Below, piece after piece: positions 22,499-40,579 of a DNA stretch of 64,000 nucleotides. Position 1 is the stretch's first letter, and every line of letters starts with the position of its first letter. The translations under genes and the position numbers were made by a program. A model generated the notes under the pieces. That model had not been told where the DNA came from. It was given only the letters and a program-made list of their open reading frames with translations, and searched no databases. Origin of the DNA: Kitasatospora sp. NBC_01266 (GTDB lineage Bacteria; Actinomycetota; Actinomycetes; Streptomycetales; Streptomycetaceae); assembly GCF_036242395.1 (NCBI RefSeq), contig NZ_CP108458.1:7068001-7132000 (forward strand), written 5' to 3'.

Positions 22499-24175
<1,677 letters not shown>

Positions 24176-25298: not shown

Positions 25299-25721
25299 TC
25301 AGCTGACGGCCGGCCCGATCAGAACGTCATCCAGGTAGCGCTGTACCGGCTCGAACAGCCCGTACGGCACGTAGTCGGCGATCTGATCGTGGGTGACCCA
25401 GGCCAGCTCGGCCAGCTCCTCGGTGTCGACCACCGTGGCGATGCCGCTCACGATCTCGCAGGCGCTGTACGACATCTGCCGGCCGGTCTTCGGGTGGATG
25501 CGCTCACCGAGTAGCCGAGTCGCCTTGACCGTCAGGCCGACCTCTTCACCAGTCTCGCGGACCGCAGCCGCCTCGGCCGTCTCGCCCGGCTCGATCTCAC
25601 CGGCCGGGAACTGCCACGACAGCTCACCTTCCTTGACGCGGCGCTGCACCATCAGGACGCGGCCGTCCTGGACCACGATGGCGGCGGCGATGCCCGGCTT
25701 ATCGGTGATCTGCTCAGTCAT
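25299..25721 (-). CDS. NUDIX hydrolase
   Basis: 140-residue single-domain NUDIX protein. The Nudix box is intact, GEIEPGETAEAAAVRETGEEVGL (GX5EX7REUXEEXGU), at about residues 41-63, inside WQFPAGEIEPGET. It would hydrolyse a nucleoside diphosphate linked to another group in a Mg-dependent reaction; the substrate is unknown. It overlaps the end of the upstream NUDIX gene by 8 bp and is the last gene of the XRE-flavoprotein-NUDIX-NUDIX operon. Confidence 0.92.
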   Translation of the reverse strand: MTEQITDKPGIAAAIVVQDGRVLMVQRRVKEGELSWQFPAGEIEPGETAEAAAVRETGEEVGLTVKATRLLGERIHPKTGRQMSYSACEIVSGIATVVDTEELAELAWVTHDQIADYVPYGLFEPVQRYLDDVLIGPAVS

Positions 25722-26364
25722 GCTGCGGCTCCTCCAGGGCGGCCAGGATGGGCGGGAAGATCGTATCGACGGGGATGAACCGGGGCACCGCGTTTCTCGG
25801 AACCCACATCACGTCGGCGTTCTCGACCGTGTCCTGGTTCTGGGCTTCCCCGGCCAGATACTCAGTCAGGAAGTACTCGCACCAGACCCCGGTAGCCGGA
25901 TGGAGCCGGCCCCCGAGGTCTTGGCGTACGGCGCAGTGAACCCCTGTCTCGGCCAACGTCTCGCGGACGGCCGCCGACGCCGGGTTCCCCCCTGGCTTGA
26001 TGACGCCTGCGGGGAACTGCCAGCGGATGCCGGCGCTCTCGTCGTCCCGGCGGCAGACGAGCAGCACCTCGGAGCCGCGCACCACTACCGCGATGGCCAC
26101 GCACAGGGCTTGGCCCGCAGTCTGTGGGCTGGCTTCGGTGGTCAGCAACGCGAACCGCTTCTGCACCGCAGGCGGCGCCGTCTCCAGGATCTGGTCGAGC
26201 AACTGCCGCATCTCGGTGCGGGGGACCAGCTCCGGATCGGCGTGCCAGGTCGCCACCGTCCGTAGGCCAATGCCCAGCCGGCCGGCGAACCCCTCGTTGG
26301 TGTCGCGCAGTGCCTCTTGGAGCACACAGGCGGACTTGCCCGTCCAGGTCCCCACCACGTCCAC
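25714..26364 (-). CDS. NUDIX-domain protein with degenerate Nudix box and N-terminal HTH-like region
   Basis: 216 residues. The first 70 resemble a small helix-turn-helix (NEGFAGRLGIGLRTVATWHA), followed by a NUDIX fold from about residue 88 (VAIAVVVRGSEVLLVCRRDD). The box reads GVIKPGGNPASAAVRETLAETGV: the first conserved Glu is Gly and one of the metal-binding Glu pair is Ala, so catalysis may be lost. NUDIX domains with such changes can act as ligand-sensing regulators (compare NrtR), and the HTH-like N-terminus fits. It sits between the flavoprotein gene (26 bp upstream) and the intact NUDIX gene. Confidence 0.8.
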   Translation of the reverse strand: MDVVGTWTGKSACVLQEALRDTNEGFAGRLGIGLRTVATWHADPELVPRTEMRQLLDQILETAPPAVQKRFALLTTEASPQTAGQALCVAIAVVVRGSEVLLVCRRDDESAGIRWQFPAGVIKPGGNPASAAVRETLAETGVHCAVRQDLGGRLHPATGVWCEYFLTEYLAGEAQNQDTVENADVMWVPRNAVPRFIPVDTIFPPILAALEEPQHD

Positions 26365-26390: not shown

Positions 26391-26930
26391 CTACGCCTTG
26401 GTCTTGGCTTCGAGTACCGGGCGCAGCAGGCGCAACGGTGTGCTCCAGTCGTACTGGTCACGGCCCCCGCCGGCTTTCGGCTTGTGCGGAACGTAGTCGC
26501 CGAACAGCACGCCCATCGCCTTCAGTCGCTCCACGTTGGCCGGGTAGGCCGGATGGGCGGCCTGGGCCGAGTTGACGTACGGCTGGGCGGCCACCGGGAT
26601 GCCCAGACCGTACGCCTCGGTGAGGATGCCGAGGGCCAGGGTGTCGGCGTGGCCATCCGCCCACTTGTTGATCGTGTTGAAGGTGGCGGGCGCGACCGCG
26701 ATGGCGTCGGCCGACGGCAGTGAGGCCGGCACCTCGGGCGTGCGCCAGGCCGAGCGGATCGGGTGGCCGGTCTGCTTCTCGATGGCGGCCTGATCGATGA
26801 ACCCCATTGCGTTCGGCGTCGCCACCACCCCGACCGCCCAGCCTTCGGCTTGGGCGACTGAGATCAGCTGGCCCACGTCGTCGGCGATGCCCGACGCGCA
26901 CACGACGACGTAGAGGAACGGCTTGCTCAA
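26391..26930 (-). CDS. Flavoprotein of the HFCD/Dfp family
   Basis: 179-residue flavin-binding protein related to the CoaC half of Dfp. It begins LYVVVCASGIADDVGQLISVAQAEGW, has the SADAIAVAPATFNTINKWADGHADTLALG cofactor region typical of HFCD proteins, and ends with an Asp/Lys-rich tail. HFCD enzymes oxidatively decarboxylate cysteine-type substrates (coenzyme A precursor, lantibiotic C-terminal Cys), but this subfamily has no assigned substrate. It overlaps the XRE regulator stop by 4 bp (ATGA), so both are translated as a unit. Confidence 0.85.
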   Translation of the reverse strand: MSKPFLYVVVCASGIADDVGQLISVAQAEGWAVGVVATPNAMGFIDQAAIEKQTGHPIRSAWRTPEVPASLPSADAIAVAPATFNTINKWADGHADTLALGILTEAYGLGIPVAAQPYVNSAQAAHPAYPANVERLKAMGVLFGDYVPHKPKAGGGRDQYDWSTPLRLLRPVLEAKTKA

Positions 26931-28204
26931 GGTCGGACTCCCAACTCACGGCTGAACTGGCGTAGCTCCGGCAGGGCACCGCGGCGGTCGCGTGCTGCCA
27001 TGTCGGCCACCAGCTCCCGGATGTCCGGACGACGCCGGATGTCTTCGGCAGCGTGACGTTCGGCGATGCGCAGGGCGCGGTAGCCCTCGGACAGTTTGCC
27101 CTGCTGGTTGAAGGCCCTGGCAAGGTCCACCCACAGTGCCGCTTGTCGTTCCGGCGCTGGGATGCGGCGGTGCAGCAGCGGCCGGGCCGTGTCGATGGCG
27201 GCGCCGGCGTCGCCCAGGGCCACCGCAGCGGACGTCCGGTGCAGCGCCACGTTGGTCTGGCTGAAGTTCGCCCAGGCATCCGGGTGGTCGCGGTCGACGT
27301 ACTGGGCGACTTCGTCGGCCTGGTCCAGCAGCTCGGCTGTGGTGGAACGGTCACCGCCGGTGCTGGCGGCCGTCACCCCGCGCAGCAGCATCAGGCCGAA
27401 GGCGGCAAGGTCACCGGGCTCGCGCTGGTCGTAGTGGCCGCCGAGTTGGTCGGCAGTGTGCTGGACCATCGTGACGGCCGGCGCGTGGTGGTGCTCGCGG
27501 GCCATAAGGTGGGTCTGGACCCGGACGCTGGACGCCAGCACTATCGGGTTGCCGCTGCGCTCTGCCTCGCTCATCGCCCGCCCGACCGCGAGCCAGGCGT
27601 TGCCGTTGTCGCCGAGCTTGATCAACATGCTGACGGTGGTCTGGTAGGCGGTGGCGGCCAGGCTGGTCAGCGTCAGGCTGCCGGGAGTCTCGTGCTGGGT
27701 GCGACGCAGGTCGGTGAGCAGTGTCGGCAGCAGGGTCTCGAGTTCGGTGTAGCGGCAGCTGTAGAGGAGGCGCCGGGCCTTCGAGAGCCCGTGACGCAGT
27801 GCCGCCTCGGTGAGCGGCTGCCGGTCGGGCAGCATGGCGGCCGTTGGCAGGAGGGCCTGGACCAGATCGAGGCCGGCGGTGTGGGGGCGAGCTGGAACCG
27901 CGAGGGCCGCCACGCCGGCAGCCAGGAAGCCTTGACGCTGCATGTCGTCCGTCCTGAGGTCCGCGCTTCTGGGGGAGGTGGTTAGGCCCAGGCTTTCCAG
28001 GGGAATGTCGAGCTCCGCCGCGACGGCCCGGAGGACCCGTACGTCGTCGGTGCCGATGCCCTTCTCCAGTCGGCTCAGCTTCGACTGGTGGTAGCCCAGC
28101 TTGGAAGCCACGTCGTGCTGCGACCGATCGGCGATCACCCGGGCGCGCCGGATCACCGATCCGATCTGGCGTGCGCCGATGGGCTCCGGTGCCGCCTCCG
28201 ACAT
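26927..28204 (-). CDS. XRE-family regulator with TPR-like C-terminal domain
   Basis: 425-residue regulator. An XRE/Cro HTH at about residues 15-65 (IRRARVIADRSQHDVASKLGYHQSKLSRLEKGIG) is followed by a long helical region with tetratricopeptide-like periodicity, the layout of Streptomyces actinobacterial XRE-TPR regulators that respond to small ligands or peptides. ATG 28204 has AGGAGGAGCC directly upstream; the 11-codon extension is not needed. First gene of the four-gene minus-strand operon, and it probably controls it. Confidence 0.88.
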   Translation of the reverse strand: MSEAAPEPIGARQIGSVIRRARVIADRSQHDVASKLGYHQSKLSRLEKGIGTDDVRVLRAVAAELDIPLESLGLTTSPRSADLRTDDMQRQGFLAAGVAALAVPARPHTAGLDLVQALLPTAAMLPDRQPLTEAALRHGLSKARRLLYSCRYTELETLLPTLLTDLRRTQHETPGSLTLTSLAATAYQTTVSMLIKLGDNGNAWLAVGRAMSEAERSGNPIVLASSVRVQTHLMAREHHHAPAVTMVQHTADQLGGHYDQREPGDLAAFGLMLLRGVTAASTGGDRSTTAELLDQADEVAQYVDRDHPDAWANFSQTNVALHRTSAAVALGDAGAAIDTARPLLHRRIPAPERQAALWVDLARAFNQQGKLSEGYRALRIAERHAAEDIRRRPDIRELVADMAARDRRGALPELRQFSRELGVRP

Positions 28205-28713
28205 GGCTCCTCCTGCCACCTTCAGTCTGCCTGGCACGGGCCGCGCCGACCGACCTGGATCAAGACGTCATGCACGATCTGCATAGTCCATGCAGGACGC
28301 GCGGCGAAGCCAACCGGGCCGCACCTTCATGGAGTTGACTCGGCAGCAGCCGCATCGTTCCGGGAGGAGAGCGCTCCTTGTTGCCCATCCGTCGTCCACC
28401 GCCCGCCAGCCTGCTTGCTGCACTCCGAGTGCACCGCCGCCGCACTGTGGCGGCATGGCGCCGGGAGGGTGGCGACTTCAGACTGGGGAGCGTGACCAAA
28501 GCTCGCACTTGCACGGACAGTTGCGAGGCCAGTACTGGCTGATTCTAGGCCAGCGCCGGCCGCAGTGGGGGAGCGATCAGGAAGCCCCGCGGTCTGGCGC
28601 TCGGCTGGTCGGCTCCGCGAATCGAAAATCGCTTCACCCGCGCAGGTAACCTCAGTGTCGGACGGGCTTGATGCACCGTCATATCGCCACTCTGGCAAGC
28701 CGAAAGGGAACAA
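28205..28713. other. 509-bp divergent promoter region
   Basis: No protein-like frame is present. It must hold promoters for the XRE operon (minus) and the NDK-like gene (plus). A GAAAGGGA ribosome site precedes the latter. I see no clear palindrome. Confidence 0.55.
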
Positions 28714-29223
28714 ATGACCGAGGAGAACCAGGCTCAGGTCGAGCGCACGCTCGTGCTTCTCAAGCCCGACGCGGTGGCCCGCGGTCTGGCCGGCCGGATC
28801 CTGCAGCGGTTCGAGGACGCCGCGCTCAAGGTCGTCGGCACGAAGATGAAGTGGATGGACGCGGAGTTCACCCGCCGGCACTACTTCGACCTGGAGGAGC
28901 GGCTCGGCTCCGAGGTCTACAACCTGACCGCCACCTTCATGCAGCAGGGGCCGGTCATCGCTCTGGTGCTGGAGGGCTACGACGCCATCGCCACGGTCCG
29001 GAAGATCGTGGGCAGCACCTACCCGAACCAGGCGCCGGCCGGCACCATCCGCGGCGACTTCTCGCACATGAGTTCAGGGGCGAGCCTGGCCGTGGGCAAG
29101 GCGGTGGCCAACCTGGTCCACGCCTCCGGCAACCGCGAGGAAGCCGCGCAGGAAGTCGACCTCTGGTTCGCGAAGGACGAGCTGTTCGACTACAAGACGC
29201 TGGCCGAGACCTACATCTACTGA
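28714..29223 (+). CDS. Nucleoside-diphosphate kinase-like protein
   Basis: 169-residue NDK-fold protein. VERTLVLLKPDAVARGLAGRILQRFED is the family N-terminus, and IRGDFSHMSSGASLAV then NLVHASGNREEAAQEVDLWF carries the His expected to be phosphorylated (NLVHAS; NLIHAS in true NDKs). It is about 30 residues longer than the housekeeping 137-residue Ndk and lies among accessory genes, so it is probably a paralogue with a special nucleotide role. Phosphate transfer between NTP and NDP is inferred. Confidence 0.87.
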   Translation: MTEENQAQVERTLVLLKPDAVARGLAGRILQRFEDAALKVVGTKMKWMDAEFTRRHYFDLEERLGSEVYNLTATFMQQGPVIALVLEGYDAIATVRKIVGSTYPNQAPAGTIRGDFSHMSSGASLAVGKAVANLVHASGNREEAAQEVDLWFAKDELFDYKTLAETYIY

Positions 29224-29308
29224 TCGGTGGCCGTCCGAGCGTCACCCCGGTGGCGCTGGCCAAGTTCACCACCACAGAACGACCGGCACGAGGAAAGGGC
29301 ACCGACTG

Positions 29309-29608
29309 ATGACGAACACGACCCACCTGGCTTCCGCGGCCGAGCTGGAGGCCGCGTTCCAGCAGGAGCTGGCGACGGACACCTGGGCGGCGACCGAGAC
29401 CGCGTACGCCCTGGCGCTGCGGCTGCGCGACGCCGGCGAGTGGGACACCTCGCGCGAGTGGGTCAAGCAGTGCCTCCAACTGCTGGAGGGCTTCCCGTCC
29501 GACACCTTGGACCAGGTGGCCACCCGGCGCACCAGCGTTGGCGGTGTGCCGCTGCCGAACTACCTGCACGAGGGCGTGGTCCGCGAACGGTTCGGCGAGC
29601 TGGCCTGA
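29309..29608 (+). CDS. Hypothetical protein (99 aa)
   Basis: I do not recognise this family. It is a soluble, largely helical 99-residue protein with the runs ASAAELEAAFQQELATDTWAA and SREWVKQCLQLLEGFPSDT; a C-terminal loop ends PLPNYLHEGVVRERFGELA. ATG 29309 is 85 bp after the NDK-like gene and preceded by AGGAAAGG. Codon use is normal for the genome, and it is probably part of the same transcript. Confidence 0.7.
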   Translation: MTNTTHLASAAELEAAFQQELATDTWAATETAYALALRLRDAGEWDTSREWVKQCLQLLEGFPSDTLDQVATRRTSVGGVPLPNYLHEGVVRERFGELA

Positions 29609-29757
29609 CGTAACGCACGGTTGGTGGTGCGGCGAGGAGAGCAGCGGCCAGCCGCACCACCATCGAACAACTTCACAGCTACCATCCGGGCCGGCCAGGG
29701 ATACCTGGCGCCGGCCCGGCCCCATCAGGCATGCCCGAATCAGGAAGGACGACTGCC

Positions 29758-30354
29758 ATGGCCATCGAGATCGAGATGCGCGCCCGCTTCGACAAGGATG
29801 CCCACGACGCCCTCGTGGAGCGGCTGACCAAGGACGGCGAAGACCTGGGCCAGGACGACAAGCACATCCACTTCTTCGTGCTGCCGGACCAGCTGCTGAA
29901 GGTCACCGACAACCAGTCCGCCGGCACCGCCAAGATCACGCTCAAGGACAGCAGGATCGGCCAGGGCGCGGCCTTCGGCGAGACCGAGTTCCCGATCGCC
30001 CGGGACGACGTGCCCAAGGCCGTACAGCTCTTCGCCGCCCTGGGATTCGAGGACGACCGGCACGAAGCCTTCAACTTCCGCCGCAACTTCCTCTTCAGGG
30101 GTGTCGAGATCGCGGTCAAGTGGAGCGAAGCGTGGGGCTACCACGCCGAGTTCGAGCGGGTGCTGCCGGGCGACGCTCCGGCCGCCGCCAAGGACGAAGC
30201 CACCACCGAGATCATCGACGTGGCCGCCGAGCTGGGCGTCACCCTGATGACCGAAGACGAGCTGGCCGCCTTCACCGCTGCCTTCGAGGCCGAGGAGGCC
30301 GCGCGCAAGGCTGCCCGGTCCGTCGAGATCCGGCAGGGCTCCCAACCGTCCTGA
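29758..30354 (+). CDS. CYTH-domain protein (class IV adenylate cyclase / thiamine-triphosphatase fold)
   Basis: 198-residue protein with the CYTH N-terminal signature as MAIEIEMRARF (ExExxxK/R pattern) and alternating charged strands (HIHFFVLPDQLLKVTD, GTAKITLKDSR, FGETEFPIARDDV). CYTH enzymes bind triphosphate groups in a beta tunnel and include adenylate cyclases, thiamine triphosphatases and inorganic triphosphatases. Which of these it is cannot be told. ATG 29758 follows GGAAGGA by about 9 nt. First gene of a compact block CYTH-HD-460 aa-methyltransferase. Confidence 0.82.
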   Translation: MAIEIEMRARFDKDAHDALVERLTKDGEDLGQDDKHIHFFVLPDQLLKVTDNQSAGTAKITLKDSRIGQGAAFGETEFPIARDDVPKAVQLFAALGFEDDRHEAFNFRRNFLFRGVEIAVKWSEAWGYHAEFERVLPGDAPAAAKDEATTEIIDVAAELGVTLMTEDELAAFTAAFEAEEAARKAARSVEIRQGSQPS

Positions 30355-30377
30355 CCACCGAGGGGGTGGGCTGCACC

Positions 30378-31139
30378 ATGAGCACGACCCACACGGACAG
30401 CTTGGTCGAGTTGGCTGCCCGCAAGGAACTGCCGCACCACCAGTTCACCGACGCCGTCACCGTCGAGTGGATCAAGGCCAACCGGCCCGACTTCCCGGTG
30501 GCCTGGCCGCCGCCGCTGCGCCCCACCACGAAGGCCCTGATCGAGTCGGCCGCCATCCCCACCCGGTGGCTGGCCCAACCTCAGCTCGCCGACTCCATCC
30601 ACGGCCACCGGCACGGCCTGCGGACGGCAGTCCTCGCCGCGCTGCTGGCCGACTGGTACGGGCTGAACGAGTCGGACGCCGCCGCCGTGGTCATCGCGGC
30701 GGCAGTGCACGACTGCCAGCGGCACCACGACAAGGGCGACCCGGGCCATGGTGGACGGGCCGCGGTCTGGCTGGCCGCCAACGCCGACCTGGTCTGGACG
30801 CACTTCCGTCGCCGGCCCAGCCCGAGCGAGGTGATCAGGGCCGCCATCGCCGTGCGGCTGCACGAGGTGGCGTACGAGGCGTTCACCGCCGACGACCGCG
30901 TCGACCACACCCGAAACCGGCAGATCTGTGACCTGGTGAAGGTGGCGGACGCCCTTGACCGCTTCCGGCTGCCGAAGCTCTCCTGGTGGCCGAACGCCCG
31001 GTACGTCCGAGAGCCGGCCTTCGGCCAGCTCGAACCTCTGGCCTTCGACCTGGTGGTTACCTCGGAGGCGGCCTTCCTGGCCGGCGCCTCCAGCATCGAG
31101 GCGGTCCGGTTCGCGGTGGCCGAGAAGGGGCTGGTGTAG
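30378..31139 (+). CDS. HD-domain metal-dependent phosphohydrolase-like protein
   Basis: 253 residues. HGHRHGLRTAVLAALLADWYG and VIAAAVHDCQRHHDKGDPGHG give the H...HD metal pattern, and a later Asp in CDLVKVADALDRFRLPKL completes it. HD proteins hydrolyse phosphates of nucleotides or signalling molecules; the substrate is unknown. ATG 30378 is 23 bp after the CYTH gene and its stop is 4 bp before the next gene, so the three are tightly coupled. Confidence 0.82.
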   Translation: MSTTHTDSLVELAARKELPHHQFTDAVTVEWIKANRPDFPVAWPPPLRPTTKALIESAAIPTRWLAQPQLADSIHGHRHGLRTAVLAALLADWYGLNESDAAAVVIAAAVHDCQRHHDKGDPGHGGRAAVWLAANADLVWTHFRRRPSPSEVIRAAIAVRLHEVAYEAFTADDRVDHTRNRQICDLVKVADALDRFRLPKLSWWPNARYVREPAFGQLEPLAFDLVVTSEAAFLAGASSIEAVRFAVAEKGLV

Positions 31140-31143
31140 GGCC

Positions 31144-32526
31144 GTGGACTTCGTGGACGCCTACGAAAGCTGGGCCGACGCGCACGCCTTCTTCGGCGCC
31201 AGCCTCGTCCCGGAGATGCCTAACCCGGATGATCCGCTCGGCGTGCAGAAGGCGGCCTGGACCGACCGCCTGTCCTCCGGCACCCCCAACGGCCACCTGC
31301 TGCGCCGCAACGCGCTGTTCGACTCGCTGGGCAGCGGCGGCAAGCTCCACCTGCTGCACGTCACCCACGCCCTGGAGAAGATCAGCCGGGATGGCGTGCT
31401 GTACCCGTCCGGCGGGTGCCTGGTCGGCAGCATCTACTGTGCGCCGCTCACCGAGGCGGACCACGGCTTCCGGCCGCACAACCTCGGCTCGTACGTGCTC
31501 ACCCGCGAGGCGCCGGCGTTCCTGGCGAAGATCGGGCGGCCGGACCACGAGCCCACGCCGCTGGTCTTCGAACTGGACCTGCCGCCGCAGGCGTACCAGG
31601 GGCTGGCCGGGGTGGACTACCTCCGGCTTGGGGCGATCCACCTGGCCATCTACTCCCACCTCGAGTACCTGCTGAGCAAGGGCGAGCGGCACCGGCTGCG
31701 CGAGACGGTGGTCAGCCGGGTGAAGAACTCCACCGCCTTCCTCGCGCTGGCCGCCGCCATCGCCTACCAGGGCGCGACCGTGGCGCCCGCGGACTTCCTG
31801 CGTCAGCTCGACGCGACGATCCCGCGCCTTCCGATCCTCGGCTACCTGTTCTTCGAGGCCCTGTCCGAGTACGTCATGCTGCACTCCACCAGTTCCCGTA
31901 CCCGGCGACTGGCCGAACTCGGCGAGTTAAACAACTGGCTCTACAAGGAGCTGCTGTTCGCCGTGCCGGGGATGATCGGCCGGTTCGACCTGGCCAAGTT
32001 CCACGTGCCCGATCTCGGCGACACCCTCCGAAAGGTCGACACCACCCTCGACCCGAACGCGGCGGCGGCCTACCTCACCGACCGCATCAGCCACCTGGTG
32101 GCCGCCCGCCTCTTCACCGCCGGTCAAGTGCCGGACCGTTGGCGCCACACCAAGTGGGAGTTCGACAGCCTCGCCACCCAGCTCGGGCCGTTGCTCGGCC
32201 ACCTGATCCACCGCGAGCTGCGCACCTTCGGCCGCTCGCCGGACTTCTACTTCTACTTCGACCAGGTCAAGGCACTCCAAGCCTGGAACTACTGGAACCA
32301 CCTCGACATCCCGGTGCCCTTCAACGGCACCATCCCCAAGGGCGAGATCGGCATCAACCCGGCCTACCCGGACCTCCAGTACAGCGTCTGGCGCGCGGTC
32401 GCCGACGAGGCCGGCAACCTGCACCCGACCGAGCAGCTGGACCTGACCGTCACCCCGCGCCTGGTCGACCTCCGCTCCACCCTGATGCGCAACAACCAGT
32501 GGGCCGCTGCGCCTGCGGTCGCCTGA
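31144..32526 (+). CDS. Uncharacterised 460-aa protein with ART-like N-terminal motif
   Basis: I do not recognise the family. It starts at GTG 31144. Residues about 60-110 read LHLLHVTHALEKISRDGVLYP...CLVGSIYCAPL, resembling the opening of DarT/DUF4433 and other ADP-ribosyltransferase-fold proteins (a His/Thr strand, helix, then -I..DGL). The rest is mixed alpha/beta with aromatic-rich segments (FYFYFDQVKALQAWNYWNHLDI near residue 390) and no other known motif. It is coupled to the HD gene (4-bp gap) and followed 78 bp later by a methyltransferase. The ART idea is inference only. Confidence 0.6.
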   Translation: MDFVDAYESWADAHAFFGASLVPEMPNPDDPLGVQKAAWTDRLSSGTPNGHLLRRNALFDSLGSGGKLHLLHVTHALEKISRDGVLYPSGGCLVGSIYCAPLTEADHGFRPHNLGSYVLTREAPAFLAKIGRPDHEPTPLVFELDLPPQAYQGLAGVDYLRLGAIHLAIYSHLEYLLSKGERHRLRETVVSRVKNSTAFLALAAAIAYQGATVAPADFLRQLDATIPRLPILGYLFFEALSEYVMLHSTSSRTRRLAELGELNNWLYKELLFAVPGMIGRFDLAKFHVPDLGDTLRKVDTTLDPNAAAAYLTDRISHLVAARLFTAGQVPDRWRHTKWEFDSLATQLGPLLGHLIHRELRTFGRSPDFYFYFDQVKALQAWNYWNHLDIPVPFNGTIPKGEIGINPAYPDLQYSVWRAVADEAGNLHPTEQLDLTVTPRLVDLRSTLMRNNQWAAAPAVA

Positions 32527-32604
32527 TTCCACCTTCGCGACCTTCGCGCCGTAGCTGACGCCCGGTCCCTTCCACCTTCATCACGTGACGAGGAGACGCT
32601 TGCC

Positions 32605-33345
32605 ATGCCCCGGGACATTTCCGGCCCACCGTCGATCGACCTGCTCGGTGAACAGATCGCTGCGCTGCTGGCCGACCCCACGCTCAGCCACGGCTTGGCC
32701 CGCACCCTGCGCGCCGCCGCCAAGGAAGTCGAGCTGAACCGCTACCACCGGGCCAGCCAGCGCGCCTGGCCGAACGGCTTGGAGCAGCGGCCGGCGAAGG
32801 TCCAGATCGGTGGTGGCAGCCACCAGATCGACGGCTTCTTCAACATCGACCTGGTCCCGCCGGCCGATCTGCTCTGGGACGTGCGCGAGGGAATTCCCCT
32901 CCGGGACAACACCGTCGAGTTCATGTTCTCCGAGCACTTCCTGGAGCACATCGACTACCCGCGGTCCGCCAAGCAGTATGCCCGCGAGGCCTTGCGGGTG
33001 CTCAGCTCCGGCGGTCAGCTGATCACCGGCGTGCCGGACGCGAGCTTCGTGCTGAACCGGTACCCGGCCCCGCCGGAGCAGAGCGCCGAGATGGTCGAGC
33101 GCTGGTACGCGAAGCGTGACTGCCGGGAGGACATCAACACCTTCCTCGACCTGATCAACTACGTCTTCCGCGACCAGGACGACGACCCGACCTACAACCC
33201 CCACCTCTGGGCCTACGACCACGAGAAGTTGGTCCAGCTGTTCACGGAGGCCGGCTTCACGACGGTGGAGCCCTGGACCTTCGACCCGACCCTGGCCAAC
33301 CCCAAGCGCGAGTGGGCCAGCGTCTACGTCATCGCCACCAAGTAG
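32605..33345 (+). CDS. SAM-dependent methyltransferase
   Basis: 246-residue class I methyltransferase. KVQIGGGSHQIDGFFNIDLVPPADLLWDVREG is motif I, in the form common to methyltransferase-11-like proteins that read 'NxD', followed by EFMFSEHFLEHIDYPRSAKQYAREALRVLSSGGQLITGVPD (motifs II and III). An N-terminal helical extension of about 60 residues precedes it. The substrate is unknown. Last intact gene of the CYTH-HD-460 aa block. Confidence 0.88.
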   Translation: MPRDISGPPSIDLLGEQIAALLADPTLSHGLARTLRAAAKEVELNRYHRASQRAWPNGLEQRPAKVQIGGGSHQIDGFFNIDLVPPADLLWDVREGIPLRDNTVEFMFSEHFLEHIDYPRSAKQYAREALRVLSSGGQLITGVPDASFVLNRYPAPPEQSAEMVERWYAKRDCREDINTFLDLINYVFRDQDDDPTYNPHLWAYDHEKLVQLFTEAGFTTVEPWTFDPTLANPKREWASVYVIATK

Positions 33346-33379: not shown

Positions 33380-33700
33380 ATGCTCGCCGACACACCGAAC
33401 GCCGTCGGCTGGGCCAGGAAGCACACCCGTGACGTGCTCCGCTGCTGGCAGGCACCGCCAGACCTGATCGACGCCGCGCTGCTGGTGGTGTCGGAGCTGG
33501 CGACCAACGCCATCCGGCACCAGGACACCAAGCAGCCCGAGCCGCTGACCTCGGCGGAGCTGACCACGGTGCGGTTGTTCGGCCTGGACCTCCAGCTGCG
33601 CGGCCAGGCCGTGTTCGTGGCCCTGCTGGTGGGAGTGCCGGGCAGTCAGCAGCTGGTCGACCTTGCGGCGGCAGTCCATGGCCGTGTCGAAGACGAGTTG
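33380..33700 (+). pseudogene. Truncated ATP-binding (HATPase_c/RsbW-like) protein fragment
   Basis: The frame from ATG 33380 starts like a Streptomyces ATP-binding regulator: AVGWARKHTRDVLRCWQAPPDLID, then LLVVSELATNAIRH, which is the N box. The expected G boxes (DxGxGxG and GRGL) never appear; after about 50 residues the sequence becomes unrelated. The frame stays open to 34168 through what looks like non-coding DNA. This is a decayed end of an anti-sigma-type kinase gene at the right edge of the accessory block. Confidence 0.65.
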
Positions 33701-33820
33701 CGGCGGCTTGCCGGAGGAGGCGTCAGAAGTCGCCAACCCACACGCCCCTCCCGGTCGTTGACCAGGATGCACCGTCGGTCCGCCCGGCCTGCCCCAACCC
33801 CCCGGAGGAGAGTCACACCG

Positions 33821-33989
33821 ATGAGCACCCCCCAAGTGCAGACGCCCGAGCAGCCGTTCAGCAGAATCAAGGTCCGCGTCACCGGCCCGGTCTTCTGCGG
33901 CGACGACGTCGCGCTGCTGCGCCGGGACCGCGCCGACACGGGACTTCGAGCTGGAACCTGTCATCGACGAGAACTACACCTGGATCTGA
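33821..33989 (+). pseudogene. Small peptide gene, apparently frameshifted
   Basis: ATG 33821 follows GGAGGAGAG by about 10 nt and opens MSTPQVQTPEQPFSRIKVRVTGPVFCGDDVALL. In this frame the product runs on into unlikely sequence. Removing one G in the ACGGGACTTC run at about 33940-33945 would continue it as DFELEPVIDENYTWI and stop at 33989, a natural 55-residue peptide with an acidic, aromatic end. It is either a broken small gene or a sequencing error. Function unknown. Confidence 0.45.
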
Positions 33990-34151
33990 ATCGGATGGCA
34001 CGGGCTTCCCAGCACAGGTGGGGAGCCCGTGCCGGCGGCGGGGCTGGGAGAGGGCCCTCGCACCCGAAGGGTACGTATGCGAATGGTGTATTCGTTCCGA
34101 ATGGCCGACCGACCGCGAGGCCGCTGATGGATGGATCGCCAATGGCTGTCG

Positions 34152-34170
34152 CTTCAACGAGTTGTTGAAG
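34152..34170. promoter_or_regulatory. Regulon palindrome, gcl site (best copy)
   Basis: CTTCAAC-GAGTT-GTTGAAG is a perfect inverted repeat with 7-bp arms. It ends 17 bp before the -35 TTGACG (34188-34193), with an 18-bp spacer and TACCGT (34212-34217) as a possible -10, and lies 112 bp before the gcl start. Confidence 0.78.
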
Positions 34171-34281: not shown

Positions 34282-36069
<1,788 letters not shown>

Positions 36070-38079: not shown

Positions 38080-39462
38080 TCAGCCGCGGGCGGCCAGCTC
38101 CTTGGCGGCGCGGGCGCAGGCCAGCGCGATCTGGTCCTCGTTGACGGTGGTCAGGGTGTCCTTCTCGACCACCGCGTTGCCGTTGACGAAGAGCACCGCC
38201 AGCGGCGGCAGCGCGCCCATGGTCAGCGCGGCCACCGGGTCGGCGATCGAGGAGTGCATGATCCCGTCGACCTTCCAGAGCGCCAGGTCGGCGAGCTTGC
38301 CCACCTCGATCGAGCCGATCTCGTGCTGCCGGCCCAGCACCCGGGCGCCGCCCATGGTGCCCAGCCGCAGCGCGCCGCGCGCGGTCAGGGCGTTGGGGCG
38401 GCCGTGCAGCCGGTTGATCAGCAGCGCGTTGCGCAGCTCGGTGCCCAGTTCGCCGGACTCGTTGGAGGCGGTGCCGTCCACGCCCAGACCCACCGGGACG
38501 CCGGCCTTCAGCATGTCCGGGACCCGGGCGATGCCGGCCGCCAGCCGCGCGTTGGAGGACGGGCAGTGCGCCACGCCGGTGCCGGTCTCGGCGAACTTGG
38601 CGATGTCGGAGTCGTTCATGTGGACGCAGTGCGCCATCCAGACGTCCTCGCCCAGCCAGCCGGTGGACTCGAAGTAGTCGGTGGGGCCCATGCCGAACAG
38701 CTCCTTGCAGAACTGCTCCTCCTCGGCCGTCTCCGAGCCGTGGGTGTGCAGCCGCACGCCCTTGCGGCGGGCCAGCACGGCGGCTTCCCGCAGCAGCTCG
38801 GTGGAGACCGAGAACGGCGAGCAGGGCGCGATGGCGACGTGCAGCATCGAGCCGAACGAGGCGTCGTGGTAGGTGTCCACGGCCGCCTCGGAGGCGATCA
38901 GGATCTCCTCGGTGGTCTCCACCGCGTGGTCCGGCGGCAGGCCGCCGTCCTTCTTGCTGCGGTCCATCGAGCCGCGCAGCGCGGTGAAGCGCAGGCCGAG
39001 CGACTGGACGGCTTCTATCGAGGCGCCCAGGATGTCGCCGCCGTCCTTCGGGAACACGTAGTGGTGGTCCGAGGCGGTGGTGCAGCCGGACTTGAGCAGC
39101 GCGGCGGCCGAGCCGAGGGTGGCCGCGTGGACCAACTGGTCGTCTATCCGGGCCCAGGTCGGGTAGAGCGCGACGAGCCAGTCGAAGAGGATGTCGTCCT
39201 GGGCCAGGCCGCGGGTGATCCACTGGTAGAAGTGGTGGTGGGTGTTGACCAGGCCCGGGGTGATCAGGTGGCCCTCACCGTTGATCCGGCGCACCACGTT
39301 GTCCAGCCACTGCGGCGCCGGACCGTTGCCGACCGACTCGATGAGGTTGCCCTTGATCACCACGTGGCCGCGGGTGTACTCGGTGTCCTCGGCGTCGACG
39401 GTGGCGATGGCGACGTTCTCGATCACGATCCGCTGGTCGGCGGGCGGGGGCTGGACTGCCAT
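38080..39462 (-). CDS. 8-oxoguanine deaminase (guanine deaminase-type amidohydrolase)
   Basis: 460-residue metal-dependent amidohydrolase of the cytosine/guanine deaminase branch. LITPGLVNTHHHFYQW holds the HxH pair, LHTHGSETAEEEQF the third His, WMAHCVHMNDSD the fourth, and GLGVDGTASNES the catalytic Asp. The close fit is to 8-oxoguanine deaminases, which yield urate from 8-oxoguanine; ordinary guanine deaminase is the alternative. Being next to uricase supports a product entering the urate pathway. Last gene of the uraD-uraH-pucL operon. Confidence 0.85.
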   Translation of the reverse strand: MAVQPPPADQRIVIENVAIATVDAEDTEYTRGHVVIKGNLIESVGNGPAPQWLDNVVRRINGEGHLITPGLVNTHHHFYQWITRGLAQDDILFDWLVALYPTWARIDDQLVHAATLGSAAALLKSGCTTASDHHYVFPKDGGDILGASIEAVQSLGLRFTALRGSMDRSKKDGGLPPDHAVETTEEILIASEAAVDTYHDASFGSMLHVAIAPCSPFSVSTELLREAAVLARRKGVRLHTHGSETAEEEQFCKELFGMGPTDYFESTGWLGEDVWMAHCVHMNDSDIAKFAETGTGVAHCPSSNARLAAGIARVPDMLKAGVPVGLGVDGTASNESGELGTELRNALLINRLHGRPNALTARGALRLGTMGGARVLGRQHEIGSIEVGKLADLALWKVDGIMHSSIADPVAALTMGALPPLAVLFVNGNAVVEKDTLTTVNEDQIALACARAAKELAARG

Positions 39463-39664: not shown

Positions 39665-40579
39665 TCAGGCGACGGGTATCACCGGGGTGACGCCCTCGCG
39701 GTGCACGGTGCCCTCGATCAGGCCGTACATCCGGTCGGCGGCGTAGTAGACCTCGTTGTCGTTGCTGAGGTCGAAGGGCGACAGGTCGACCAGGAAGTGG
39801 TGCTTGTTCGGCAGCTCCAGCCGGACCTCGTCCACCTCGGCGCGGTTGTTCAGCACCCGGGTGCCCATCGCGTGCAGGGTCTGCTGCAGCGAGTAGGAGT
39901 AGGTCTCGGCGAAGGCCTCCAGCAGGTGGCGGCGGACATGCTGGTAGGAGCGGTTCCAGTTCGGCTGGGCCTCGTCCGCCCGGCCGCGGTAGGAGTACGC
40001 CCAGCGGGCCGTCACCTGGGTGGCCAGGATCCGGTCGTAGGCCTCCTGCAGGGTGGTGTACTTGTCCTTGATGTAGCCCCAGAACTCGGAGTTGGTCGTG
40101 TTCAGCACGACCAGGTCCTTGAGACCGGAGATCACCTGGACGATCTCGCCGTCGTAGCCGATCTCGGTGGTGCGGACCTCACCGCCGTCGCGGACGAAGG
40201 AGTGGCCGACCTCCTCGGAGCCGATGAAGCGCGAGGTGCTGTCCGGGGTCCTGATCCGGTTCCAGGAGTACTCCTCGATCCGGATCCGGGCGCCGTGCAC
40301 CGGCGGGGTGTTGTCGACGAAGTGCCGCGCCAGCGTGATGCCGAACGCCTCCGCCGACTCGATGCCGTGCTCCTTGGCGAAGGCGTAGACGGTGTTCTTG
40401 GTGGTGTCGGTGGGCAGGCAGTTGGCGTTCGAGCCGGTGAGGTGGACGTCCTCGAAGTCGCCCTGGAGGGCCACCGAGACGTTCAGGTCCTTGATCTCGT
40501 GACGGGTGCTGTCACGGTAGACCCGGACGATGCGGTTCTCCGCCTTGCCGTACTGGTTCTGACCGAGCACGTGGGCCAT
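39665..40579 (-). CDS. pucL: Urate oxidase (factor-independent urate hydroxylase)
   Basis: 304-residue cofactor-free uricase, converting urate to 5-hydroxyisourate with release of H2O2. HVLGQNQYGKAENRIVRVYRD at the N-terminus contains the catalytic Lys; LPTDTTKNTVYAFAKEHGI carries the catalytic Thr; NTTNSEFWGYIKDKYTTLQE and the KHHFLVDLSPFDLSNDNEVYYA end segment are typical of both T-fold halves. Length is normal. It is the third gene of the minus-strand operon and supplies the substrate of UraH. Confidence 0.96.
   Translation of the reverse strand: MAHVLGQNQYGKAENRIVRVYRDSTRHEIKDLNVSVALQGDFEDVHLTGSNANCLPTDTTKNTVYAFAKEHGIESAEAFGITLARHFVDNTPPVHGARIRIEEYSWNRIRTPDSTSRFIGSEEVGHSFVRDGGEVRTTEIGYDGEIVQVISGLKDLVVLNTTNSEFWGYIKDKYTTLQEAYDRILATQVTARWAYSYRGRADEAQPNWNRSYQHVRRHLLEAFAETYSYSLQQTLHAMGTRVLNNRAEVDEVRLELPNKHHFLVDLSPFDLSNDNEVYYAADRMYGLIEGTVHREGVTPVIPVA

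What the first reader, a model, noticed from the sequence alone, without database searches (positions are those of the whole stretch)
28714..33345. Nucleotide-chemistry cluster: NDK-like, CYTH, HD, 460-aa ART-like protein, methyltransferase
Seen: genes in one direction with small gaps (CYTH-HD 23 bp, HD-460 aa 4 bp, then methyltransferase 78 bp). The 460-aa protein has a DarT/DUF4433-like opening (LHVTHALEKISRDGVLYP). NDK-like, triphosphate tunnel, HD phosphohydrolase and possible ADP-ribosyl transfer all act on nucleotides. Inferred: a nucleotide-based modification, signalling or defence cluster; divergent NUDIX operon next to it could handle its products.
Basis: inference. Interest (0 to 1): 0.6.

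Follow-up and report, generated by a model that had tools for sequence, protein, structure and literature searches.

The report
Conserved ADP-ribosyl and phosphohydrolase gene cassette
This is a conserved, mobile set of about eight genes, found in Streptomyces relatives and in tiny uncultured bacteria and archaea, whose core is an unnamed enzyme predicted to use the cofactor NAD plus a partner that cuts phosphate bonds; it probably builds a modified nucleotide or sugar, but nobody has tested it.

Summary
The 460-aa protein (P460) matches no Pfam, NCBIfam or PADLOC family. Its confident AlphaFold model has a split beta core; the PDB alignments that cross its helical insert are nearly all ADP-ribosyltransferase (ART) folds, and H72, Y98 and E401 are invariant in 46 of 46. 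The ART call is probable, but no hit is statistically significant. The HD protein keeps its metal ligands (43 of 43); its best structural matches are Legionella SidE/Dup phosphodiesterase domains, which act on ADP-ribosylated ubiquitin. In 293 genomes, 12 of 12 strong HD hits lie next to P460, as do 8 of 8 CYTH and 9 of 9 strong methyltransferase hits. Thirty loci carry NUDIX-NUDIX/NDK-99aa-CYTH-HD-P460-methyltransferase. CPR and DPANN contigs carry CYTH-HD-P460 with kinases or cytidine deaminases; a sister clade adds nucleotide-sugar enzymes. Best reading (0.4): P460 ADP-ribosylates a small acceptor and HD cleaves the adduct to phosphoribosyl-X. CYTH lacks the cyclase signature, so cyclic-nucleotide signalling is disfavoured. 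DarT membership and phage defence are unsupported. No function is shown.

The parts
25299..25721 (-). NUDIX1, hydrolase with intact Nudix box
   Evidence: Pfam NUDIX 3.2e-23; box residues G41, E47, R55, E56, E59, E60, G62 conserved in 34 of 34 loci
25714..26364 (-). NUDIX2, degenerate Nudix domain behind an N-terminal stretch that looks like a helix-turn-helix (read by eye, no model hit); probable ligand sensor
   Evidence: Pfam NUDIX 3.5e-17 at residues 89-193; the Glu of GX5E is absent in 33 of 33 aligned homologues
26391..26930 (-). flavoprotein, variable accessory gene
   Evidence: Pfam Flavoprotein 9.9e-11; near P460 in only a few loci
26927..28237 (-). HTH regulator of NsdA-like make-up, variable accessory gene
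   Evidence: Pfam HTH_31 6.5e-7; NsdA family 1e-12, below its cut-off
28714..29223 (+). second nucleoside diphosphate kinase
   Evidence: Pfam NDK; catalytic-type residues K17, Y57, R96, T102, R113, N133, H136, S138, E147 invariant in 13 of 13; the genome has another NDK elsewhere
29309..29608 (+). conserved 99-aa gene of unknown role
   Evidence: no family above cut-off; present in 44 of 84 loci
29731..30354 (+). CYTH / triphosphate tunnel protein
   Evidence: Pfam CYTH 0.0052, 1.7e-8 for a paralogue in L083; tunnel residues invariant in 22 of 22; ExExR in 53 of 53 loci, no HF cyclase motif
30378..31139 (+). HD phosphohydrolase, partner of P460
   Evidence: H75, H79, H111-D112, H124, H162, D191 invariant in 43 of 43; AlphaFold pLDDT 95.6; SidE/Dup PDE domains best matches
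31144..32526 (+). P460, probable ART-fold enzyme with a large helical insert
   Evidence: AlphaFold pLDDT 90.9, pTM 0.91; RES and other ART chains lead the structural list
31357..31359 (+). P460 codon H72 (first strand, H-x-T)
   Evidence: invariant 46 of 46
31435..31437 (+). P460 codon Y98 (second strand)
   Evidence: invariant 46 of 46
31630..32301 (+). P460 helical insert, residues about 163-386
   Evidence: secondary structure of the model
32344..32346 (+). P460 codon E401 in PKGE
   Evidence: invariant 46 of 46
32605..33345 (+). class I SAM methyltransferase
   Evidence: Pfam Methyltransf_11 1.4e-5; linked to P460 in 54 of 84 loci

Best explanation
P460 is an ART-fold, NAD+-using enzyme that attaches ADP-ribose to a small acceptor X, most likely a nucleotide or nucleotide-sugar. 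The adjacent HD protein then cuts the pyrophosphate of ADP-ribosyl-X, releasing AMP and leaving (or handing on) phosphoribosyl-X, in the manner of the ART and phosphodiesterase domains of SidE. In the window version, NDK and CYTH set the phosphate state of the nucleotide acceptor or product, the methyltransferase finishes it, NUDIX1 destroys surplus or damaged product, and the degenerate NUDIX2 senses the product and controls the divergent promoter. Shown here: gene set, linkage, conserved residues, predicted folds, context by clade. Inferred: NAD+ use, acceptor, order of steps, product, sensing role.
For: P460 model is confident. In one search, 7 of the 50 rows shown align on both sides of the insert (end at or beyond residue 418): RES toxin twice (Z 4.7, 127 aligned, rmsd 4.7; Z 4.5, 130 aligned), diphtheria toxin twice (3.8, 3.6), a streptococcal NAD+ glycohydrolase complex (2.7), an anti-CRISPR protein (6kyf, which I recall as an ART; 2.6) and one phage ejectosome chain (4.4): 5 ART-superfamily by title and 1 by recall, of 7. 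H72, Y98, E401 invariant in 46 of 46. HD: 17 of the first 19 rows are chains of Legionella SidE/Dup/Lpg1496 effectors (best Z 13.5, 192 aligned, rmsd 3.4), domains that cleave ADP-ribosyl-ubiquitin to phosphoribosyl-ubiquitin and AMP (PMC6941232 and PMC10143409, passages). HD is an obligate partner: 12 of 12 strong hits in 293 genomes lie next to P460, and HD is directly upstream in 67 of the 69 loci that have it. Acceptor: CPR/DPANN loci add kinases, cytidine deaminases, a thymidylate-synthase relative and NUDIX; the sister clade adds epimerases, DegT, GT2 and UDP-sugar dehydrogenase. NUDIX2 degenerate, NUDIX1 intact.
Against: Foldseek finds nothing significant for P460 (best E 1.0; viral best 0.11) or HD (best E 0.027). 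The ART rows have Z below 5. Profile comparison with RES and KptA is not significant, though RES against KptA, both ARTs, is not either. SidE rows are many entries of a few proteins, and a plain HD hydrolase (2pq7, Z 12.1, 149 aligned) is close behind. The window HD keeps a full set of metal ligands, whereas SidE-type PDEs are described with a His-Glu-His triad; that triad was not mapped. P460 occurs without a detected HD in 11 of 23 genomes, so HD is not always needed.
Confidence: 0.4

Rival explanations
1. A nucleotide-based signalling or anti-phage system: CYTH or P460 makes a nucleotide messenger, HD and NUDIX destroy it.
For: Patchy, mobile distribution (14 of 61 relatives; plasmids; viral-collection contigs); PADLOC candidate model PDC-S07 hits both NUDIX proteins (2.8e-18, 9.3e-10); nucleotide enzymes throughout.
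Against: CYTH lacks the HFxxxxExExK cyclase signature in 53 of 53 loci (PMC8233210). No effector protein (membrane, nuclease, protease) is among the genes that travel with the cassette. No PADLOC model for P460, HD, CYTH, NDK. No match in the phage collection.
Confidence: 0.2
2. An RNA or DNA end-repair or base-modification module: P460 acts like Tpt1/KptA or a DNA-modifying ART, HD as end phosphatase, CYTH as RNA triphosphatase, methyltransferase as end methylase.
For: Weak P460-KptA profile alignment that superposes H72-x-T on KptA's HGT (E 0.014-0.046 for a single comparison, probability 1-3%); a kinase (AAA_17/18) and CYTH in CPR loci.
Against: No ligase, RtcB, RtcA or nucleic-acid-binding domain recognised in the loci read (not searched by profile). 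Sister clade sits with sugar-nucleotide enzymes and glycosyltransferases.
Confidence: 0.17
3. A toxin-antitoxin pair: P460 an ART toxin, HD its neutralising enzyme.
For: HD directly precedes P460 with a few bases between them in most loci; best fold match of P460 is the RES toxin.
Against: P460 exists without detected HD in 11 of 23 genomes and, in type III plasmid and viral-collection loci, without HD but inside a sugar cluster; the six further conserved enzymes are unexplained.
Confidence: 0.1
4. P460 is not an ART; it is a new fold or unknown enzyme class in a nucleoside natural-product pathway.
For: No significant fold or profile match; invariant residues also lie in the helical part (E238, Y243, E261, R360, R364, K376, YWN 383-385).
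Against: The rows that cross the insert are nearly all ART-superfamily and H72, Y98, E401 fall where the ART scheme expects (scheme recalled).
Confidence: 0.13

Closest known systems
SidE/Dup phosphoribosylation enzymes of Legionella (mART plus PDE)
   Same: An ART-like enzyme coupled to an HD-fold phosphodiesterase; HD's best structural matches.
   Different: Separate genes in a metabolic operon, no sign of secretion looked for or seen; full HD metal ligands; P460 appears to be of His-Tyr-Glu rather than Arg-Ser-Glu type (scheme recalled); no ubiquitin.
RES domain of RES-Xre toxin-antitoxin systems
   Same: Best structural matches of P460 (Z 4.7 and 4.5).
   Different: P460 has a helical insert of about 220 residues, no RES Pfam hit, no paired Xre antitoxin directly beside it, multi-enzyme operon.
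KptA/Tpt1 RNA 2'-phosphotransferase
   Same: ART superfamily; H-x-T motif aligned.
   Different: Not significant; the genome has its own KptA elsewhere (G000:C1:6232732-6233235).
CYTH triphosphate tunnel enzymes
   Same: ExExR/K and ExE motifs, basic tunnel residues.
   Different: No HF cyclase motif; substrate unknown.
NrtR-type Nudix regulators (recalled)
   Same: A DNA-binding-like segment with a Nudix domain that has lost catalytic residues.
   Different: Order of domains differs (recalled); ligand untested.

Membership tests
ADP-ribosyltransferase superfamily (P460) | ART beta core | tested here: inconclusive
   Model confident; 5 of 7 rows crossing the insert are ART by title, a sixth by recall, but Z below 5; Foldseek not significant
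ADP-ribosyltransferase superfamily (P460) | His-Tyr-Glu triad conserved | tested here: met
   H72, Y98, E401 in 46 of 46; spatial arrangement not measured, coordinates not available
ADP-ribosyltransferase superfamily (P460) | uses NAD+ | not testable with these tools
   needs an enzyme assay
DarT (DUF4433) | matches the curated family model | tested here: not met
   no Pfam family at E up to 1 for P460
DarTG | paired with a macrodomain antitoxin | not tested
   partner genes scanned are HD, CYTH, MT, NDK, NUDIX; no macrodomain profile was searched in the loci
HD phosphohydrolase superfamily | H...HD...D metal ligands | tested here: met
   H79, H111-D112, D191 in 43 of 43
HD phosphohydrolase superfamily | Pfam HD gathering score (22 bits) | tested here: not met
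   19 bits, E 0.0018 for the window protein; 33 of 43 members match at E up to 0.1
SidE/Dup PDE | fold | tested here: inconclusive
   best rows Z 13.5-9.8; Foldseek best E 0.027 and to other PDEs
SidE/Dup PDE | catalytic triad H277-E340-H407 | not tested
   residue mapping not available; effector sequences were not fetched
Class IV adenylyl cyclase (CyaB) | HF four residues before ExExK | tested here: not met
   0 of 53 loci; criterion from PMC8233210
Triphosphate tunnel enzyme | ExExK/R and ExE | tested here: met
   ExExR in 53 of 53; E75-x-E77 invariant in 22 of 22
Nucleoside diphosphate kinase | family match and catalytic residues | tested here: met
   PF00334 1.4e-38; nine catalytic-type residues 13 of 13 (roles recalled)
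Known anti-phage defence system | PADLOC model for core genes | tested here: not met
   none for P460, HD, CYTH, NDK; NUDIX hits the candidate PDC-S07 only; MT hits mad2 weakly, 0.018

The most novel reading that the evidence does not exclude
A so far undescribed NAD+-fuelled phosphoribosylation pathway: SidE-type two-step chemistry (ADP-ribosyl transfer, then AMP release) carried by stand-alone P460 and HD genes that spread between actinobacteria, CPR bacteria and DPANN archaea, acting on nucleotides or nucleotide-sugars to make a new class of phosphoribosylated metabolites used as antibiotics, signals or anti-phage compounds, with a product-sensing Nudix-type regulator.
Probability: 0.22. 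Interest if true: 0.85.

Novelty: new variant of a known kind. Interest (0 to 1): 0.62.

Why it matters
If the reading holds, it moves ADP-ribosyl-to-phosphoribosyl chemistry, known from secreted Legionella effectors, into a conserved prokaryotic gene cassette with metabolic partners, and gives an assay-ready entry point (NAD+ turnover, one operon) to a protein family that none of the libraries searched here names and that spans Streptomyces relatives and CPR/DPANN lineages. Even if the ART call is wrong, a core of CYTH, HD, P460 and usually a methyltransferase kept together across actinobacteria, CPR bacteria and an archaeal contig calls for an explanation.

Tried and rejected
Full-length P460 profiles against PDB sequences gave nothing at E up to 1 and only chance hits at E up to 10; HD gave only weak hits (best 0.33). 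Foldseek against PDB and viral models gave no significant match. In one search SidE mART, PARP, DarT and KptA are not listed; that excludes nothing. Profile-profile comparison of P460 with RES and KptA was not significant, and the control RES-KptA was not either. PARP sequences were sought in 149 genomes for a comparison; 1 had a match, below the family's cut-off, so it was dropped. A class IV cyclase reading of CYTH was rejected on the missing HF motif. DarT was dropped for lack of a Pfam match. Toxin-antitoxin was set low because P460 occurs without detected HD. A phage link was not supported by the phage collection; seven contigs of the viral collection carry P460, and whether these are true proviruses was not tested. 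Paper searches for a description of this gene set: (open-licence library only); none of the listed titles and abstract starts describes it. Papers seen: PMC6941232, PMC10143409, PMC8233210, PMC9503650 passages only; PMC12977470 abstract and outline only; all others search listings only. In the methyltransferase scan 60 of 293 genomes match at E 0.001; only the 9 genomes with E below 1e-70 are counted as this family (51 dropped; one of them, G212, has a broken copy at about 1e-25 without a P460 hit). In the HD scan three matches at E 3e-4 to 9e-4 were dropped as generic. These scans scored only part of the first-look candidates per genome, so misses are possible. My ORF caller for high-GC neighbours is crude; neighbour calls were used only as leads.
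Full report
Observation. The genes are present as described, with one conserved 99-aa gene overlooked. P460 matches 14 of 61 relatives and 23 of 293 genomes of the order, so it is a patchy, accessory trait. The window copy lies between malate synthase and glyoxylate carboligase genes (function names by eye and recall); in the four closest relatives examined, those genes were not found within about 8-10 kb, so the position differs.

Linkage. In the same 293 genomes, all 12 strong HD hits (E below 1e-80), all 8 CYTH hits and all 9 genomes with a strong methyltransferase hit (E below 1e-70) lie beside P460 by coordinates. P460 is found without strong HD in 11 of 23 genomes. A genome-collection scan found 119 relatives, of which the 80 best (77 loci) were kept, and a viral-collection scan 7. 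Over these 84 loci: HD 69, methyltransferase 54, CYTH 53, NDK 44, 99-aa gene 44, NUDIX2 35, NUDIX1 34; 30 loci have the complete set in window order. In the Micromonosporaceae-type loci L073 and L075 the same eight genes stand in another order, all on one strand, which shows that the NUDIX pair belongs to the module.

Context by clade. The tree of 46 P460 proteins groups by gene context with the smallest possible number of changes (4 for five groups). Type I is the window arrangement. Type IV lies in contigs named as Parvarchaeota/Nanoarchaeota, Woesebacteria, Parcubacteria, Sungbacteria and two unplaced bacteria: CYTH, HD and P460 in each of 7 loci, with the methyltransferase in 6 of 7, plus a P-loop kinase in 5 and a cytidine deaminase in 4; L083 has instead a thymidylate-synthase relative (2.2e-10), a second CYTH, a kinase and two genes that read as NUDIX by eye. 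The contig of L082 also carries genes that read by eye as archaeal prolyl-tRNA synthetase and EF-1 alpha, so it is unlikely to be a misbinned fragment. Type II (Kitasatospora, Streptomyces) is epimerase, GT2, HD, P460, with DegT, a second epimerase and a Gfo/Idh oxidoreductase in some; type III is TauD, GT2, UDP-sugar dehydrogenase, P460, GT4 without HD, on plasmids and viral-collection contigs. Type V has P460 without these partners (L072, L076, L077; L074 keeps an HD 258 bases away).

P460. The AlphaFold model is confident (pLDDT 90.9, pTM 0.91): strands at 67-74, 97-105, 138-145, 154-157, then about 220 residues of helix, then strands at 402-404, 412-420, 426-432. No Foldseek match is significant. 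In the second look the alignments that use both halves of the split core are RES toxin, diphtheria toxin, an NAD+ glycohydrolase, an anti-CRISPR protein (recalled as an ART) and one phage chain; the helical insert alone resembles HEPN-like bundles. H72 (H-x-T), Y98 and E401 are invariant in 46 of 46 and lie at or beside the expected strands; I recall the same H-Y-E layout from PARPs and diphtheria toxin. Call it probable, not proven.

HD. The model is very confident (pLDDT 95.6). All metal ligands of an HD hydrolase, and an extra His four residues before the first, are invariant in 43 of 43. Of the first 19 rows of the second look, 17 are Legionella SidE/Dup/Lpg1496-type chains (Z 13.5 to 9.8), which are several entries of a few proteins (some titled only as Legionella effector); a plain HD hydrolase has Z 12.1 over fewer residues. 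The papers (passages only) state that SidE PDEs turn ADP-ribosyl-ubiquitin into phosphoribosyl-ubiquitin with release of AMP. An ART-like enzyme whose obligate neighbour resembles that PDE suggests the two-step scheme. It remains an inference from fold and linkage.

Other members. CYTH keeps the tunnel residues but not the cyclase motif (0 of 53), so it is likely a triphosphatase. NDK keeps all its catalytic-type residues (13 of 13) and is not the only NDK of the genome. NUDIX1 keeps the Nudix box (34 of 34); NUDIX2 has lost its key Glu (33 of 33 aligned) and carries an N-terminal segment that reads as a helix-turn-helix, which fits a sensor. The 99-aa protein is unexplained.

Conclusion. The finding is a genuine, unnamed, mobile nucleotide/sugar-chemistry cassette. 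Function is not shown; the mechanism is put at 0.4.

Noticed in passing
window 33380-34168: The gene after the methyltransferase begins like a histidine-kinase-type ATP-binding protein but seems to leave its frame part-way, compared with the intact form that follows the cassette in other loci (e.g. L034:12956-13546); likely a broken copy.
   Followed up: partly
window 22499-24175, 34282-36069, 38080-39462, 39665-40579: Genes that read as malate synthase, glyoxylate carboligase, a deaminase and uricase flank the cassette, as if it were inserted into a purine/allantoin degradation region.
   Followed up: no
L119:3267-5892: On a Streptomyces plasmid near HD-P460, a B12-binding radical SAM protein, a dTMP kinase and a NUDIX protein form a tight row, another possible nucleotide-modification set.
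   Followed up: partly
L121:13371-14477: The glycosyltransferase beside type III P460 matches Pfam GT4-conflict (5e-8), a family named for conflict systems.
   Followed up: no
L118:18372-18962: A gene annotated as Pycsar effector family protein lies about 5 kb from P460 on a Nonomuraea plasmid.
   Followed up: no
L083:11353-12000: A 216-aa thymidylate-synthase relative (2.2e-10) directly follows P460 in a Woesebacteria contig, in the place of the methyltransferase.
   Followed up: partly
window 29309-29608: Conserved 99-aa protein of the cassette without a family; 44 of 84 loci.
   Followed up: partly
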